From the NCBI GenBank assembly GCA_012523975.1, contig JAAYSF010000016.1, positions 1 to 57,837 on the forward strand: 57,837 bases of DNA. The letters run 5' to 3'. Origin of the DNA: Veillonellaceae bacterium. Lineage in GTDB: Bacteria; Bacillota; Negativicutes; JAAYSF01. The notes under the pieces were generated by a model. That model was not told the DNA's origin. It searched no databases and saw only the letters and a list, made by a program, of their open reading frames with translations. Shown in pieces: positions 4,534-44,924 of this stretch; the stretch's first letter is position 1; each line of letters begins with the position of its first letter. The translations under genes and the position numbers were made by a program.

Positions 4534-4641
4534 CACTTATAAATCTTTATCTCAGATATACGGAGGGGGGTCATAGTATTGAAGAGTTAGATGATATACT
4601 CAGAAATTCTGGAAATAAAAACTAGAAATGTGGAGGGAAAA

Positions 4642-5757
4642 ATGATGAGAAAAAGTTCTAAAAAGGCAGCTCTGGCAGTTGCCGCAATGTTAGTAGGTTC
4701 AATGTTCTGTACGCCGGTGTTTGCAGCTGCACCTGATACTAACGAAGCTACCTATGGAGATGTGGACCTTAAAAGTTGGGGAGACAACAACGATGTGGCT
4801 TCTGTAGGTGCACAAGTTTTTGATTCCTTAGATTACAATATTGCAACAAGTTTTAGTGTTAGGGCCATAAATGGTAGTGCAACTAATCCAGAAAACTACA
4901 ATGACGTGATGGCCATAGGAGCACGCGTGGGTGAAAGCCGCGACTGGAATATTGCCACTATGAAGGGTGATGTTACTGCAAAGAATTTTGGCTCGGGAAT
5001 AAGTGGCTTAAGAAATGAAGTGACTGCGATTGGCGCCCAGATACTGGACTCTAAGAATGGTAATACCGCTACACAGGGCGCCAACGTAACCGCCTCAAAT
5101 TCAGGCGATTTTAGCAACGTTACTGCTATTGGTGTATCTATTGCGGATAGCGGTCATAACAATACTGCCACAACGGGAAGTTGGGGTGCGGTAACAGCAA
5201 CAAATATTCCCAATGGAGCAGACCTAGTTAATCCAACGAATGGTGTACATGATGCTGGTTTGAACAATGTTTTAGCCTTTGGAGCAGGGATTAGTGAAAG
5301 CGGCGATGGCAATACTGCACATATGCAAACATATGTCAGTGCAATAAACTATGCCAATTACGGCAATACATATGGCAATGACGTTACAGCAATAGGAGCA
5401 TTAGTATCCGGAAGTGATAACGGCAATACAGCAAAAGCTTGGAGTACCTTTGCTGAAATATGGCCGGATCGTAACGACCAGATCGACGGATATCATGGCG
5501 AGTCTTATAATAACACTGCGACTAGCCTTGGAGCTCAGGTTATTGATAGTGGTTCCTATAACACTGCTAATGCAATGAATGTAAGACTTGACATGGGCGG
5601 CTTTGGAAATAGCGTTGCTGCAGTTGGCGCTCAAGTGTTGAATAGCGGCAACTATAATGTTGCAACTGGTGGCGATGTATACGCGAAGTCCGTCGGCAAT
5701 AACAACAAAATCACTGCTATAGGTGCCCAAATAAGCAAAAGCGTTAAAAAGAAATAA
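4642..5757 (+). CDS. Secreted head-repeat protein without membrane anchor
   Basis: The frame is open from 4591, but the GGAGGG ribosome site at 4632 selects ATG 4642 or 4645, giving a clean signal peptide cut after TPVFAAA. The mature part, about 340 residues, is built from imperfect 30-40 residue units of the form VTAIGAQxxDSxxGNTAT, related to YadA-type head repeats in which AIGA turns stack as a beta-roll. Unlike its neighbours it has no neck or C-terminal barrel and ends in the basic tail SKSVKKK. It may be released, or bound to the adjacent adhesins. Function unknown; surface location inferred. It is the first gene of the rightward adhesin pair. Confidence 0.75.
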   Translation: MMRKSSKKAALAVAAMLVGSMFCTPVFAAAPDTNEATYGDVDLKSWGDNNDVASVGAQVFDSLDYNIATSFSVRAINGSATNPENYNDVMAIGARVGESRDWNIATMKGDVTAKNFGSGISGLRNEVTAIGAQILDSKNGNTATQGANVTASNSGDFSNVTAIGVSIADSGHNNTATTGSWGAVTATNIPNGADLVNPTNGVHDAGLNNVLAFGAGISESGDGNTAHMQTYVSAINYANYGNTYGNDVTAIGALVSGSDNGNTAKAWSTFAEIWPDRNDQIDGYHGESYNNTATSLGAQVIDSGSYNTANAMNVRLDMGGFGNSVAAVGAQVLNSGNYNVATGGDVYAKSVGNNNKITAIGAQISKSVKKK

Positions 5758-5946: not shown

Positions 5947-6933
5947 GTGATAAAAAGATGTAAAAAAATAATCATATCAGGTCTTTGTGCTGCAATGTTC
6001 CTATGCTTGCCAGCCTTCGCGCTAGCCACTGAGGCGGAAGTAGATACTAGTAACAACCAAGCTATCGGTGAAGCTAATACATCTGCGGCTGGTAATGACA
6101 ATATCGGCATTAGTATTGGTGCCGAAATTACAGGAGGTAGCCAAAACGTTGCTGTTGGCTACAGCACTCAGGTTATCAATGGCAGCTTGAATAACGCAGA
6201 AAATTATGGGGCACTTATCATTGGTGGAGGTACAGGGAACACCGCTATCGGCACTAATGCACAGGTTATTAACGGTACTTCATTAGAAGCAGTCGGCTAT
6301 GGTGCCGCAGCTGGGTGGGGAAATAATAATACTGCTATCGGCAACCATGCCTATGCTGGAGGTAACGTCTATGATAGACCAACACCTAGCGATAATAATG
6401 TTGCAATAGGGCATTATGCAGAGGCATACGGTGGCAGCAGCGTGGCAATAGGCGATCATTCAATTGCAAATGAGGCAAATACGGTTTCTGTTGGTCAACC
6501 TGACTATGAACGCCGTATCATGAATGTCGCACCAGGCTACTACGATACCGATGCCGTTAATATGAGCCAGTTGCGTAGTTTGGATAGTAAAGTTAACCGC
6601 GTAGGTTCAATTGCAATTGCAATGTCAGGCTTAGCGCCTCTTCCATATGATCCGAAAGATCCTACTCAATATTCTGCCGCATATGGCACCTATAACGGAA
6701 CCGGCGCAGTAGCTTTAGGGGTATACCACTATACTAAGCCTACAGTAATGTATAATATGGCTGTTGCCATGAGTGACGACCGTTGGGAAAAATCAGCACG
6801 TTTCGGTGTTACTTGGCGTACAGGTGGCGCCAAACCTAAGCCTCTTACACCTACTACCATCAAAAAGACCGATGAGGAAACTATTGATTCCGGAGTTAAA
6901 ATAATTCTAGCCGATAGAGTCGGTGCCAAATAA
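5947..6933 (+). CDS. YadA-type trimeric autotransporter adhesin (328 residues)
   Basis: A GTG start at 5947 follows a run of seven G. The signal peptide ends near FALATEA. Head repeats (about residues 30-180) contain NNTAIGNHA and SVAIGDHS units. A neck follows with ANTVSVGQ and TDAVNMSQLRSL. The C-terminal barrel domain (about 215-295) has SGLAPLPYDPKDPTQ and the YHYTKP segment. Three such chains form one 12-strand outer-membrane pore carrying a shared head. Unusually, about 30 polar residues follow the last predicted strand (FGVTWR), where classical members stop at an aromatic residue. A terminator follows, and the gene probably forms a surface module with its neighbours. Confidence 0.88.
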   Translation: MIKRCKKIIISGLCAAMFLCLPAFALATEAEVDTSNNQAIGEANTSAAGNDNIGISIGAEITGGSQNVAVGYSTQVINGSLNNAENYGALIIGGGTGNTAIGTNAQVINGTSLEAVGYGAAAGWGNNNTAIGNHAYAGGNVYDRPTPSDNNVAIGHYAEAYGGSSVAIGDHSIANEANTVSVGQPDYERRIMNVAPGYYDTDAVNMSQLRSLDSKVNRVGSIAIAMSGLAPLPYDPKDPTQYSAAYGTYNGTGAVALGVYHYTKPTVMYNMAVAMSDDRWEKSARFGVTWRTGGAKPKPLTPTTIKKTDEETIDSGVKIILADRVGAK

Positions 6934-7020: not shown

Positions 7021-7116
7021 TGAGGCGATATATCTACGATATTGTTGGAATTTGTTTAAAGGGAATTACTGGAAATTGCAGAATTGTTTACATATATATT
7101 TGCAGGAGGTTTTCAT

Positions 7117-7605
7117 ATGGAACGAAAAATTATCATTGCCTTATTTCTGACTCTGACAATATTACTTTCATCTCAGGTAGCATTTGCAGGAATTAAGGTT
7201 TCTAACGATGACAAGCCGGTCTTTGTATCGAGCCATATGATGGGCGGCGAAGTATTCCAGCAGCCTAATGGCGTTTCCACGTTAAGCGGAATTGCGACCG
7301 GCTTTGCCGGGGATAGATTTCCACTAAATGTACGTTTCAAGACATTGACAACATTTGTTGCGACTGCCCGCTATGAATCTCCGGAAAGTACTATTATACT
7401 TACCGATTACTCTGGAAAGAAGATTTTAACCAAATGTGACTTCTATATGTTCTTGGCTAGACCAGGAGCATTGGATACCAAAATTATTGATTGGAATATA
7501 ACCTTCCCGGAAGAAGGATTTTATGCGTTTAATATTTTTGTAGACGGAACTCTTGTCGGATACTATCCTTTTTATGTCTGGACAAAGGGTGTAGTAATTA
7601 AATAG
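7117..7605 (+). CDS. Small secreted protein, unknown function
   Basis: The ATG at 7117, placed six bases after AGGAGG, is the likely start (an earlier ATG-less extension from 7084 lacks a ribosome site). The 162-residue product has a signal peptide ending near SQVAFAG. The rest is rich in beta-prone, aromatic and Gly residues, including ATARYESPESTIILTDYSG and GFYAFNIFVDGTLVGYYPF, which suggests an immunoglobulin-like sandwich. No Cys-based lipobox is present. I do not recognise the family. Its place between adhesin genes suggests a periplasmic helper or surface accessory, which is inference from position. Confidence 0.7.
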   Translation: MERKIIIALFLTLTILLSSQVAFAGIKVSNDDKPVFVSSHMMGGEVFQQPNGVSTLSGIATGFAGDRFPLNVRFKTLTTFVATARYESPESTIILTDYSGKKILTKCDFYMFLARPGALDTKIIDWNITFPEEGFYAFNIFVDGTLVGYYPFYVWTKGVVIK

Positions 7606-7697: not shown

Positions 7698-10484
7698 TTA
7701 AGCAGTTGTAGATGAATCAGCTGATTTGCTTTCAGTGTTTGGTAGAGGCTCAATCGTTTCACTGGAATTTTTTTTGTTGTGGCTAGCTGTATTGAAACGA
7801 AGTGTAACACCAAAACGTCCCATTTGCTCACTACCACTAGTTGCGAAAGCAAGGTTGAGTAGAACGTCTTGATTAGTATAGTGATAGAAACCTAACGCAA
7901 AGGCGTTCTCCCCGGAATAAGTACCGAATCCGAATGCTGCTTGAGTAGGTTGATCCGGTTTATACGCTAACGGAGCTAGCCCGGAGATTGCTGCTGACAG
8001 AGCTCCAACTTTATCAATTCGATTGCTTAGCCAATCAAGCTGACTAACATTTATAGCATCTGTAGGATAGACGCCTGCTTGAACATTAGTTATCTGGCGT
8101 TCGTTACCTTTACTACCGACAGAAACCGTGTTATCACGATCTGCATTTGAATTTGCACCTATTGCAACGCTGTTATGGGCAGTGGCACTAGCGTTAGAGC
8201 CGATAGCCGTACTACTTGATCCAGAGGCATGTGCTTTGAAACCCATAGCTGTATTGCCAATCTCACCATTACCATTACCGGCTTGAGCGTGATTACCTAT
8301 TGCAACATTACCAATATTACCTGTGCCATTACCTGCCCACACATCATGGCCTAATGCCAGGTTATTGTCATTATACATACCATTACCCGCATAAGCATCA
8401 TGACCGATGGCTGAATTTTGGTCATTGAACCAGCCATTTCCGGCTGCTGCGTTACTACCAACTGCTGCATTCCTGTCGTTACCTATACCATTACCAGCTG
8501 CAACATTTCCACCAAGAGATAGGTTCTGATTATTGAATGTACCGTTTCCAGCTTTTGAGTTATGACCAATTGCAGCATTGAAGTCATTGCCGATACCGTT
8601 GCCGGCTGCTACTTCATGGCCAAGTGCCAGATTCATATCATTTTTCGCGCCATTACCGGCTGCTGCCGCAAAACCATAAGCTTCGTTTCGATCATTGTCG
8701 TAGCCATTGCCTGCGGCTACTAGCACGCCTTTAGCTTTATTACGGTCGTTTTCCGCGCCATTACCCGCTGCTGCAAATATGCCTTCGGCTTTATTGTGAT
8801 CGTTGTCATAACCGTTGCCGGCGGCTGCCAATACGCCTACTGCCTTATTGTTAGTATTGTCGTTGCCATTACCTGCGGCTACGCCAAGACCAAATGCCTT
8901 GTTATTTTCATTGCCATTACCGTTGCCTGCGACTGCCAATACGCCTGCTGCTGTATTGTCGGTGTTACCGTTGCCATTGCCTGCGGCTACGCCAAGACCA
9001 AATGCCTTGTTATTATTGTTGCTGTCACCGTTACCGGCGGCTGCCAATACGCCAACTGCCGTATTGTTAGTGTTGTCGTTGCCATTACTGCCTGCTGATG
9101 CTAATGCGCCTAGCGCTATATTGTTGGAATTGTTATTGCCGTTAGTACCTGCTGATGCTGAAGTACCAATAGCTACGTTTTGCATATTGTCATTTCCGTT
9201 ACCTGCTTTAGAACCATCACCTATTGCAAAGTTAAGGCTGTTTCTTTCTCCATTTCCAGCCTCTGCCGCTTGTCCTGCGGCGATATTAACCTTATTATCG
9301 TCACCATTTCCAGCTCTGGATCGATCTCCAATTGCAAAATTGGCAATATTCCTATTTCCGTCTCCCGCTTGAGCGGATTCACCTGATGAGCCATTTAAAA
9401 TGTTCTTAGTGCCATTACCAGCAGTAGCACCATTTCCATCAGCGTAATTAAAGAAGTTTAAGCTTCCTTCACCGGCCACACCACCATTATTACCAACGTT
9501 ACCACCATTTCCCATCCCATTTCCAGCTCTTGAGTCCTTACCGGTTGCAATATTTCCAACATTTAGTGTTCCATTACCGGCTTTAGATCCTTGGCCGTCT
9601 GCCACATTGCCGATATTGCCGCCACCAATCAGTATCTCACCATCTTCGGATTTACCACCGTTGCCAGCTTGTGCATTCTTCCCATAGGCTTCATTACCCA
9701 TGTTCAAAACACCGTAACCTGCTTTAGCAGACTCACCATCAGCGATATTATTTTTGTTTAGAATGCCATTACCAGCAGATCCTCCGTTAGATGCATTATT
9801 CTCTTCATTGAATCCGCCTATGTAGTTATCGTCCACTTTAAATCCATTTCCTGCTGTTGAATTAGCATCATTAGCGATGTTATTCTTATTACCAATACCG
9901 TTTCCCGCTGATGCATAATCTCCATTAGCAGTATTACTTATATTACCACCGCCAATTCCAACTCCTAATATACTTTCACCACCGTTACCAGCTGTTGCAC
10001 CAATACCTGTTGCTTTATTACTAGCGTTATTAGCTCCATTTCCTGCCTTCGCACCGACGCCATCTGAGATGTTGCCATTATTATTTGTACCATTTCCGGC
10101 TTCTGCATGATTTCCTTCTGCAATATTGTTGTTGTTATTTCCAAAATCACCATTCCCGGCTCGTGCATAATCGCCTTTAGCTTGATTATTATCGTTACCT
10201 CCTGCATCACCATTCCCCGCTTCTGCGTGGCTTCCGATTGCAATATTATTATCGTTGAAACCTAGTTCACCGTTTCCCGCACGAGCATGATCGCCATCAG
10301 CAACGTTTTCCGTATTAGGACTAATTTCAAACCAAAGAACTTTATGGTAAGGTCGTCCAGCTTCAGCACCTGCACCATTTTCCACATTTCCACTAACCGA
10401 AGCCCACGCCGGTGCAACATAAAGCGTCTGCACCGCTAAGCACAATGTAACGACCGACACTTTCCCCCATTTACTTAGTTTCAT
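7698..10484 (-). CDS. Giant YadA-type adhesin with about 36 18-residue AGNG repeats
   Basis: The 928-residue protein has a signal peptide (cut near APAWAS), a very long repeat region (about residues 65-745), a short canonical head ([17 protein letters not shown]), a neck ([22 protein letters not shown]) and a C-terminal barrel ([36 protein letters not shown]). The repeats follow AGNGxxNxxNxAxGxxAx, 18 residues per unit, with 31 exact AGNG and several AGDG, AGEG or AGTNG variants. This differs from the usual 14-residue YadA head unit and gives regular columns of Asn and Ala. A 30-residue Ser/Asn-rich tail follows the last strand. It lies 40 bases behind the adhesin at 10525-11484, so the two form an operon. 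Role: surface fibre, probably adhesion. Confidence 0.88.
8256..10285 (-). repeat. Protein-coding tandem repeats of 54 bp
   Basis: About 36 successive units of 54 bases encode the 18-residue AGNGxxNxxNxAxGxxAx motif. Units in the middle (about 8690-9110) are more alike than those at the ends. A few are lengthened by short inserts, for example the IGGGNIGN and VGIGGGNIS segments. Confidence 0.9.
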
Positions 10485-10524
10485 GTCTTTCCTCCTATCA
10501 GAAATGCCATACTTAGCTGCATTT

Positions 10525-11484
10525 CTAACCCTTCACTTCATTATCAGTAATCGCTGAATCACTTTCATTTATACTCACTTGAGCCATAGTTTCAACTGCT
10601 TCAGGAGTTACAGCCGTTACAGGCACCTGCTCCGGGACTACTGACTGAGCTTTAGGTGAAGCAGGAACTACAGGATTAGCCGGAGTAACTGGGGCCACTG
10701 GAGTAATGGGGGCTAGTGGATCTGCCGGTGCTGAATTTTGTTCTTTATCTTTAGATTTCTTTAAACGTACTGTTAATCCCGCGCGTCCCATCTTTTCACT
10801 TCCGCTAATTGCAAAAGCAGCATTTAGCAAAACATCTTCCTTCGTGTAGTGGTAAATACCAGCGGCAAGTGCATTTTCGCCTGAATACATGCCTGTTGCA
10901 ACTGCAACTTGAGTCGGCTGGTCTTCTTTATAGGAAAGCGGAGCTAAACCGGACATTGCGGCTGCTAAAGAGCCTACTTTATCAATTCGGCTAGACTCTC
11001 GCTTTAACTGACGAACATTAACGGCGTCAGTTGGGGCTACACCATCAGCAACATGAATTATTTGGCGCTCGTTTCCAGCGCTGCCAACTGATACAGTATT
11101 AGCACGATCACCTGTTGTTGAACCGCCGCCAATAGCAACACTATCTTCAGCGGTAGCAGTTGCACCCGCGCCAATCGCTGTAGTATTAGTTCCATTAGCA
11201 GTAGCTTCAAACCCTACTGCTGTGTTATTTGACTGGTTATTTTCAGTTCCAGCTTGAGCATTATATCCTATAGCAACATTGTTATCACTGTTTTGCCCGG
11301 TACCAGCTTTAGCATCATTGCCAACTGCCGTATTGTTTTCACTCCCACTACCGGCTCCAGCTCCTGCTTGAGCGTCACAGCCGATATCTACATTACTTGA
11401 AGCCCATACTGCGGGAGTACCACACATAATAACAGCCATACATAAGAGACCAATAAAACCTTTTCTAATCTTACCCAGTTTCAT
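10525..11484 (-). CDS. YadA-type adhesin with proline-rich C-terminal extension
   Basis: This 319-residue protein has a signal peptide (cut near PAVWAS), a canonical YadA head of about 110 residues with NTAVG, NVAIG, TTAIG and SVAIG turns, a neck ([22 protein letters not shown]) and a barrel domain closely matching that of the giant adhesin ([24 protein letters not shown]). About 85 residues follow the barrel, with [16 protein letters not shown] repeats. If the barrel inserts as in YadA, this tail would face the periplasm and might contact the wall. It is the promoter-proximal gene of the two-adhesin operon and has an AGGAGG site and a structured leader upstream. Confidence 0.88.
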
Positions 11485-11717: not shown

Positions 11718-11764
11718 AAAAAGCCGTGAGAATGCTTAATTCATAAGCATTCTCACGGCTTTTT
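11718..11764. terminator. Very strong terminator within a divergent intergenic region
   Basis: A 21-bp perfect stem (11718-11738 with 11744-11764) around ATTCA, bounded by A and T runs. Both flanking genes point away from it, so it is upstream of both. Confidence 0.8.
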
Positions 11765-44288: not shown

Positions 44289-44924
44289 CTATGTGCTAAA
44301 CCACAACGAGAAAAAAGTGTCGTGGTTTTCATAATAGCAATCATCGTCACGAATTAGGATAAAGACCCCATTGTGAAAGAATCCGATACTGACTAACTCG
44401 TCATAATCGTTATAAAACATAATCGCATTAACTACCCGATGATTATGATACCAAAAACCTGCGCCATGCCTATCTATCCATCGGTACGGGCGCAGCCCCG
44501 GAAATCTGTCGTGCCATTCATGGTTCTCAATCAGTATCATATGGTGTTGAACTGAGTGACGGTCAAAACGTTCATGCCACTTGAATGGAATATGAGCCCG
44601 ATATGAGCGTTCTACCGGGCGCCAATGCTTCTGATTGTACTTTGGATGAGACCAGTCATGATGACCATCGCGCCGACGATCAACCCGCTGGTGATGGCGC
44701 TGCTCGTGTCTATCACGCTCTACTCTCTCGCGCTGCTGTTTATCCCGCTCCACTCTCTCGCGCTGCTGCTTATCCCGCTCTTGCTGTCCCCGAGCCTGCT
44801 CTGCCAAATTGTAATTATCTTGTAAGTTAGCATGCTGACGATAATTTATGTTATTCTCTGCTTTTGTCACCGAGGGTATCGATAAAACAAACATAACGAG
44901 GCATAAGATGATTATCCTTTTCAT
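44289..44924 (-). CDS. Secreted Arg/His/Gln-rich protein with 10-residue duplication
   Basis: The 211-residue protein has a signal peptide cut near VTKAEN. A basic low-complexity segment (about residues 45-95) contains two identical DKQQRERVER units, then RHEQRHHQRVDRRRDGHH. The second half is aromatic and His-rich (HWRPVERSYRAHIPFKWHER, FDRHSVQHHMILIENHEWHD). Many His residues could bind metals. It is probably a periplasmic or surface protein, and no family is recognised. GGAGGG precedes ATG 44924. Confidence 0.75.
   Translation of the reverse strand: MKRIIILCLVMFVLSIPSVTKAENNINYRQHANLQDNYNLAEQARGQQERDKQQRERVERDKQQRERVERDRHEQRHHQRVDRRRDGHHDWSHPKYNQKHWRPVERSYRAHIPFKWHERFDRHSVQHHMILIENHEWHDRFPGLRPYRWIDRHGAGFWYHNHRVVNAIMFYNDYDELVSIGFFHNGVFILIRDDDCYYENHDTFFSLWFST

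What the first reader, a model, noticed from the sequence alone, without database searches (positions are those of the whole stretch)
7698..10484. YadA-type fibre with about 36 units of an 18-residue AGNG repeat
Classical YadA heads use 14-residue turns. Here nearly the whole passenger follows AGNGxxNxxNxAxGxxAx, with regular Asn and Ala columns and 31 exact AGNG. This implies a different solenoid geometry, possibly with Asn ladders, forming a long stalk-like beta-roll. More uniform central units suggest repeat expansion.
Basis: partly seen in the sequence, partly recalled or inferred. Interest (0 to 1): 0.6.

Follow-up and report, generated by a model that had tools for sequence, protein, structure and literature searches.

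The report
YadA-type fibre with 18-residue turns
A diderm Firmicute encodes a trimeric surface adhesin whose fibre is a long, length-variable stack of about 36 beta-roll turns, each four residues longer than the 14-residue turn known from YadA; it is a rare, uncharacterised variant of a known adhesin family and not a new kind of protein.

Summary
ORF 7698-10484(-), 928 aa, has a signal peptide, 36 AG-anchored turns (31 exact AGNG; exact 18-residue period over most of the C-terminal two thirds, irregular 17-29-residue units before it), two canonical 14-residue YadA turns, a neck and a YadA anchor. It is the second gene of a two-TAA operon that recurs in two other Negativicutes families. Orthologues carry about 69 and at least 52 turns, with near-identical 108-bp (two-turn) and 168-bp (three-turn) tandem copies, so length grows by whole turns. 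The inner strand (xAxG) and outer Ala columns line up with the 14-residue left-handed beta-roll, and the four extra residues fall at the corner where published rolls take rare loop insertions. AlphaFold2 gives a confident solenoid, closest in the PDB to BpaC, BoaA, EibD and YadA, with extra bridges per turn. Two features look unusual: charged residues at positions equivalent to the trimer-axis positions (23%/14% of unique turns against 0.7% in 14-residue controls), and a two-layer alternation there. The strict repeat was found in only 4 of 380 class genomes. New variant of a known kind; trimer packing and adhesive function are untested.

The parts
7698..10484 (-). 928-aa trimeric-autotransporter-like fibre protein
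   Evidence: Open frame with ATG, signal peptide, repeat array, YadA head/neck/anchor
10401..10484 (-). signal peptide [28 protein letters not shown] (residues 1-28)
   Evidence: Read directly from the sequence; near-identical in orthologues G034 and G309
10491..10496 (-). AGGAGG ribosome-binding site of the fibre gene
   Evidence: Sequence
9423..10280 (-). irregular N-terminal array, residues 69-354 (units of 17-29 residues with AGNG starts)
   Evidence: Unit table; weaker full-length model, mostly pLDDT 45-88
8229..9422 (-). regular 18-residue array AGNGxxNxxNxAxGxxAx, residues 355-752
   Evidence: Unit table and autocorrelation; column counts; AF2 pLDDT about 98 over most of it
8799..9088 (.). 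108-bp tandem array (two turns per copy, 2.7 copies, 82% matches) inside the regular array
   Evidence: Tandem Repeats Finder
8145..8228 (-). two canonical 14-residue YadA head turns, residues 753-780
   Evidence: Pfam YadA_head 2.2e-12 on the C-terminal fragment
8031..8144 (-). neck, residues 781-818 ([32 protein letters not shown])
   Evidence: Pfam YadA_stalk 1.7e-7; PDB hits
7794..7964 (-). YadA-like membrane anchor, residues 841-897
   Evidence: Pfam YadA_anchor 1.1e-9
7701..7793 (-). short polar tail after the anchor, residues 898-928
   Evidence: Sequence; Negativicutes TAAs are reported to carry extra C-terminal segments (PMC7549365)
10525..11484 (-). first gene of the pair: small 319-aa TAA with three AGxG-type 18-residue turns, 14-residue turns, neck, anchor and Pro-rich tail
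   Evidence: Pfam; orthologues in G034 and G309

Best explanation
This is a type Vc secreted (trimeric autotransporter) surface fibre. Shown by sequence: signal peptide, long repeat array, one neck, YadA anchor, almost no coiled-coil stalk. Inferred: three chains cross the inner membrane by Sec, the anchors form the trimeric barrel with Omp85 help, and the passengers fold outside as a left-handed parallel beta-roll. Each 18-residue turn equals the 14-residue YadA/BpaC turn (inner strand xAxG, outer strand AxA) plus four residues at one corner, where invariant Asn at positions 7 and 10 and the AGNG corner stack from turn to turn. The roll itself is the spacer, about 17 nm at the 0.48 nm rise measured for BpaC. 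Its length changes by recombination that adds or removes whole two- or three-turn blocks in frame. The likely role is adhesion or cell-cell aggregation, as for Veillonella VtaA.
For: Head, neck and anchor by Pfam and PDB homologues; Omp85 proteins in the genome. The junction [46 protein letters not shown] aligns 18- and 14-residue turns, with the four extra residues between A13 and S4 of the published numbering; PMC9543794 states that the rare insertions in known rolls lie between positions 14 and 1. Small-TAA orthologues in the same operon slot use 14-residue turns (G034) or 18-residue turns (window, G309), so the turn types are interchangeable. AF2 on residues 483-830: pLDDT 92, about 98 in the array, beta throughout. 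Best PDB folds are BpaC 7o23 (1.5e-7), BoaA, EibD and YadA. Whole-turn expansion: G034 108 bp x12.4 (90%) and 168 bp x5.5 (95%); G321 108/216 bp; 36, 69 and at least 52 turns. Long-gene orthologues group together (93/95).
Against: No trimer could be modelled. AF2 is known to over-predict confident beta-solenoids for repeats (PMC11795689), and the alignment had seven rows. TM-scores to solved rolls are low (0.3-0.6). Charged residues at trimer-axis positions in many turns fit poorly with a YadA-like core. Adhesion was not tested, and the irregular N-terminal third models weakly.
Confidence: 0.8

Rival explanations
1. A genuinely different solenoid: a wider, left-handed, roughly three-sided beta-helix with 18 residues per turn (like LpxA/GlmU helices) that needs no YadA-type trimer core and was grafted onto a YadA neck and anchor.
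For: The AF2 model has extra bridges at positions 4-5 and 8 of each turn. Behind the YadA-like heads, the next group of weak PDB matches is LpxA/GlmU left-handed helices. Charged residues sit at axis positions.
Against: Residues of the inner and outer strands keep the YadA columns; no hexapeptide-repeat family matches; 18- and 14-residue turns follow each other in one chain and swap between orthologues; LpxA-type matches have E of 0.06 or worse and TM about 0.2.
Confidence: 0.12
2. An RTX-like calcium beta-roll (18 residues per turn, GGxGxDxUx nonapeptides).
For: The same turn length and a G-x-G-x-x-N resemblance in the first nine residues.
Against: No conserved Asp at position 6, no hydrophobic U8, no second GGxGxD half; no Pfam calcium-repeat match; no RTX protein among the listed structure matches.
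Confidence: 0.02
3. The array is mostly disordered or a low-complexity Asn/Gly linker, and the solenoid model is an AlphaFold2 artefact.
For: AF2 gives confident but unrealistic solenoids for random perfect repeats (PMC11795689); composition is about 22% Gly and 21% Asn.
Against: The repeats are not perfect: 20 of 20 strict units differ, yet N7, N10, A12 and G14 are conserved while other columns vary. That looks like selection on a fold, and it recurs in four genomes. The repeat runs continuously into Pfam-recognised YadA turns.
Confidence: 0.05

Closest known systems
BpaC C-terminal head, Burkholderia pseudomallei (PDB 7o23, PMC9543794)
   Same: Long repeat-expanded left-handed roll (42 turns), polar axis positions, Asn ladder, membrane-proximal position; best Foldseek hit
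   Different: 14-residue turns and a three-layer motif with Thr/Ser/Asn core; here 18-residue turns, a two-layer motif, and Lys/Glu at axis positions
YadA head (PDB 1p9h) and Pfam YadA_head PF05658
   Same: Inner strand SVAIG-like, outer AxA, neck and anchor; the last two turns here are canonical
   Different: The 18-residue array itself gives no Pfam match
CbpF, Fusobacterium nucleatum (PDB 9gh4/9gh5, PMC12012533)
   Same: Roll with extra residues protruding at a loop; TAA of a non-proteobacterium
   Different: CbpF has one 8-residue loop that binds CEACAM1; here every turn is extended by four residues
VtaA and other Veillonella trimeric autotransporters (PMC7549365)
   Same: Negativicutes TAAs with an extra segment after the anchor; VtaA drives autoaggregation
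   Different: Those carry SLH or coiled-coil ends; here a short polar tail. Repeat lengths were not compared
UspA1 head, Moraxella catarrhalis
   Same: Roll turns not strictly 14 residues (mostly 15, PMC9543794)
   Different: One extra residue, not four; the AGNG/Asn pattern was not looked for in it

Membership tests
Type Vc trimeric autotransporter adhesins | C-terminal YadA anchor domain | tested here: met
   PF03895 E 1.1e-9, 38.6 bits against cut-off 22.7, on the C-terminal 194 aa; the whole protein scores no family, probably because of composition correction
Type Vc trimeric autotransporter adhesins | Signal peptide, head, neck in order | tested here: met
   Sequence; YadA_head 2.2e-12 and YadA_stalk 1.7e-7
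Type Vc trimeric autotransporter adhesins | Coiled-coil stalk between head and anchor (usual, of variable length; not strictly required) | tested here: inconclusive
   Only a ~12-residue helix is predicted between neck and anchor, in a low-confidence part of the single-chain model
Type Vc trimeric autotransporter adhesins | Homotrimer in the outer membrane | not testable with these tools
   Only single chains can be modelled; Omp85 proteins are present in the genome
Canonical YadA-like head (14-residue left-handed parallel beta-roll) | 14-residue turns, motif GxNSVAIGAxSxAx | tested here: not met
   Array period is 18 and gives no PF05658 hit; only the last two turns fit
Canonical YadA-like head (14-residue left-handed parallel beta-roll) | Inner strand xAxG and outer AxA columns, left-handed roll fold | tested here: met
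   Column counts, alignment at the 18/14 junction, Foldseek best hits all YadA-like heads; AF2 caveat applies
Canonical YadA-like head (14-residue left-handed parallel beta-roll) | Uncharged (hydrophobic or Thr/Ser/Asn) residues at axis positions 5 and 7 | tested here: not met
   Charged in 13/57 and 8/57 unique 18-residue turns against 1/148 and 1/148 14-residue turns (Fisher p 2e-7 and 2e-4)
Left-handed beta-helix of hexapeptide acyltransferases | Hexapeptide repeat [LIV]GxxxX, 18 residues per turn | tested here: not met
   No such family in Pfam scans; Foldseek E 0.06 or worse
RTX calcium beta-roll | GGxGxDxUx nonapeptides | tested here: not met
   Column counts; no Pfam match

The most novel reading that the evidence does not exclude
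The 18-residue array forms a trimeric roll with a new kind of core: a two-turn (36-residue) cycle in which Lys and Glu, or large and small residues, alternate at the axis from layer to layer, giving a stacked ion-pair or solvent-filled core that tolerates easy lengthening two turns at a time.
Probability: 0.25. Interest if true: 0.6.

Novelty: new variant of a known kind. Interest (0 to 1): 0.42.

Why it matters
The solved YadA-type rolls cited here have 14- (in UspA1 mostly 15-) residue turns. A family in which every turn is extended by four residues, in orthologues that also use 14-residue turns, gives a natural series for asking how much a beta-roll turn can grow before trimer packing changes, and how surface fibres gain length by whole-turn duplication. 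The array escapes Pfam, so such proteins are likely under-annotated in Negativicutes.

Tried and rejected
RTX calcium roll, hexapeptide left-handed helix and Sel1-like helical repeats (phmmer hits to Sel1 proteins at E about 1e-5, read as chance matches of Gly/Asn/Ala spacing) were rejected. The first relative search in genome contigs with patterns from single peptides found nothing; the IUPAC repeat pattern worked. No match in viral contigs. In plasmid records no place covers 80% of the query; the ten best records matched only its C-terminal part, residues 690 onwards. Foldseek against viral models gave many adhesin/tail-fibre rolls with poor superposition and added nothing decisive. No held paper contains both 'AGNG' and 'autotransporter'.

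Full report
What is there. The frame 7698-10484(-) encodes 928 residues: a signal peptide (1-28), a Gly/Asn/Ala-rich array (69-752), two canonical 14-residue YadA head turns (753-780), a neck, a YadA-like anchor and a short polar tail. It starts 40 bases after a 319-aa TAA (10525-11484, same strand), and both genes have good ribosome-binding sites. Scanned whole, the protein matches no Pfam family at E 0.01. Its last 194 residues alone match YadA_head (2.2e-12), YadA_anchor (1.1e-9) and YadA_stalk (1.7e-7), and the 666-residue array matches nothing even at E = 1.

Is the repeat real? Lag-18 self-identity is 0.40, against 0.137 +/- 0.012 in shuffles. There are 31 exact AGNG and 36 AG-anchored turns. 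From residue 355 on, the period is 18 (two units of 19). The first third mixes 18- and 20-residue units with 26-, 28-, 29- and 17+18-residue ones. In the 20 units selected only by AGNG spacing, N7 and N10 are 20/20, G14 19/20 and A12 18/20, while positions 5, 6, 8, 9, 11, 13, 15 and 16 vary. In the G034 orthologue N7, N10 and G14 are 49/49 and A12 is 48/49.

Relatives. A strict DNA pattern for AGNGxxNxxNxAxGxxxxAGNG finds only two metagenome-assembled Negativicutes in all of genome contigs (own and very near records may be left out there). In 380 genomes of the class it finds four: own, G034, G309 and G321, from four families. The reversed-pattern control is zero. A looser 18-residue period pattern adds two genomes of the G321 genus with AGVG-type turns. 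Other species of the G034 genus lack it, so the distribution is patchy. G034 and G309 have the same gene order, small TAA then long fibre, with gaps of 40 and 16 bases. A tree of neck plus anchor groups the long fibres of window, G034 and G309 (93/95) and their small partners (84/88); these supports fall just short of the tool's own strict mark. The pair is therefore probably older than the split of these families, or moved as a unit.

Length change. Orthologues have 36 (window), about 69 (G034) and at least 52 turns (G321, cut by the contig end). G034 carries 108-bp x12.4 (90% matches), 168-bp x5.5 (95%) and 108-bp x6.5 (80%) arrays, that is, two- and three-turn blocks in frame. G321 carries 108- and 216-bp arrays. 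In the window the arrays are older: a 108-bp array at 82% and no identical units. PMC9543794 proposes the same kind of whole-layer growth for BpaC.

How an 18-residue turn relates to the 14-residue one. At the junction the chain reads [18 protein letters not shown] / [14 protein letters not shown] / [14 protein letters not shown]. The inner strand xAxG and the outer AxA coincide, and the extra four residues lie between A13 and S4 of the published numbering. PMC9543794 reports that rare insertions in known rolls sit between position 14 of one layer and position 1 of the next, and that UspA1 mostly has 15-residue layers. The small partner gene makes the same point from another side: in G034 it has only 14-residue turns, in G309 AGNG 18-residue turns, and in the window AGxG-type 18-residue turns. 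This is why I file the array as an extended YadA-type roll and not as an unrelated fold.

Structure prediction. AlphaFold2 on residues 483-830 with a seven-row alignment gives mean pLDDT 92 and about 98 over the array, with strand 11-15 and extra bridges near 18-1, 4-5 and 8 in each turn. The best PDB folds are BpaC, BoaA, EibD, YadA, UspA1 and CbpF; left-handed LpxA/GlmU helices follow far behind. The full-length model keeps the array (pLDDT about 81-98 for residues 361-730), but the N-terminal third is mostly 45-88 and the anchor is poor as a single chain. AF2 is known to give confident but false solenoids for repeats (PMC11795689), so the model counts as support only together with the sequence alignment to true YadA turns. 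No trimer could be modelled.

An unexpected feature. Positions 11 and 13 of the 18-residue turn correspond to positions 5 and 7, which face the threefold axis in YadA and BpaC. They are charged in 23% and 14% of unique 18-residue turns, but in 0.7% of 148 unique 14-residue turns from other Negativicutes TAAs (Fisher p 2e-7 and 2e-4; the units of one array are related, so these p values are optimistic). They also alternate with a two-turn cycle (EY/KA and TI/QK in G034, AV/LA in G321). The lag-2 excess is beyond shuffled order in window (p 0.013), G034 and G321 (p 0.0005 each), but not in G309 or the small G321 protein. Recent two-turn duplication could produce part of this without structural need. 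The turns nearest the membrane are ordinary hydrophobic ones.

Likely function. Inferred only: surface adhesion or aggregation, by analogy with Veillonella VtaA (PMC7549365). With hardly any stalk, the roll would set the reach, about 17 nm here and 33 nm in G034 at 0.48 nm per turn (rise from PMC9543794).

Verdict.

Noticed in passing
4591-5757 (+) with 5947-6933 (+): A secreted, anchorless ~390-aa repeat protein (no Pfam or NCBIfam match) lies just before a 328-aa TAA. A similar neighbouring pair occurs in G001 (L027), G021 (L024) and G053 (L025), so in three families; possibly a conserved soluble partner of the TAA.
   Followed up: partly
7698-10484 (-): The whole protein gives zero Pfam matches although its last 194 residues alone pass three YadA cut-offs; repeat composition seems to mask the annotation.
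   Followed up: yes
L092 (G320) and L091 (G319): G320 has mixed AGNG/AGVG/AGIG/AGTNG 18-20-residue turns and G319 has AGVG turns, both relatives of G321; these look like intermediate forms between AGNG arrays and ordinary rolls.
   Followed up: partly
7084-7605 (+): Secreted DUF6941 protein (3.1e-6) between the two TAA groups.
   Followed up: no
11718-11764 (-): A 20-pair hairpin followed by T-rich sequence upstream of the TAA pair; looks like a terminator that insulates the operon.
   Followed up: no
44697-44780: 30-bp tandem repeat (2.5 copies, 90%) inside ORF 44289-44924(-).
   Followed up: no
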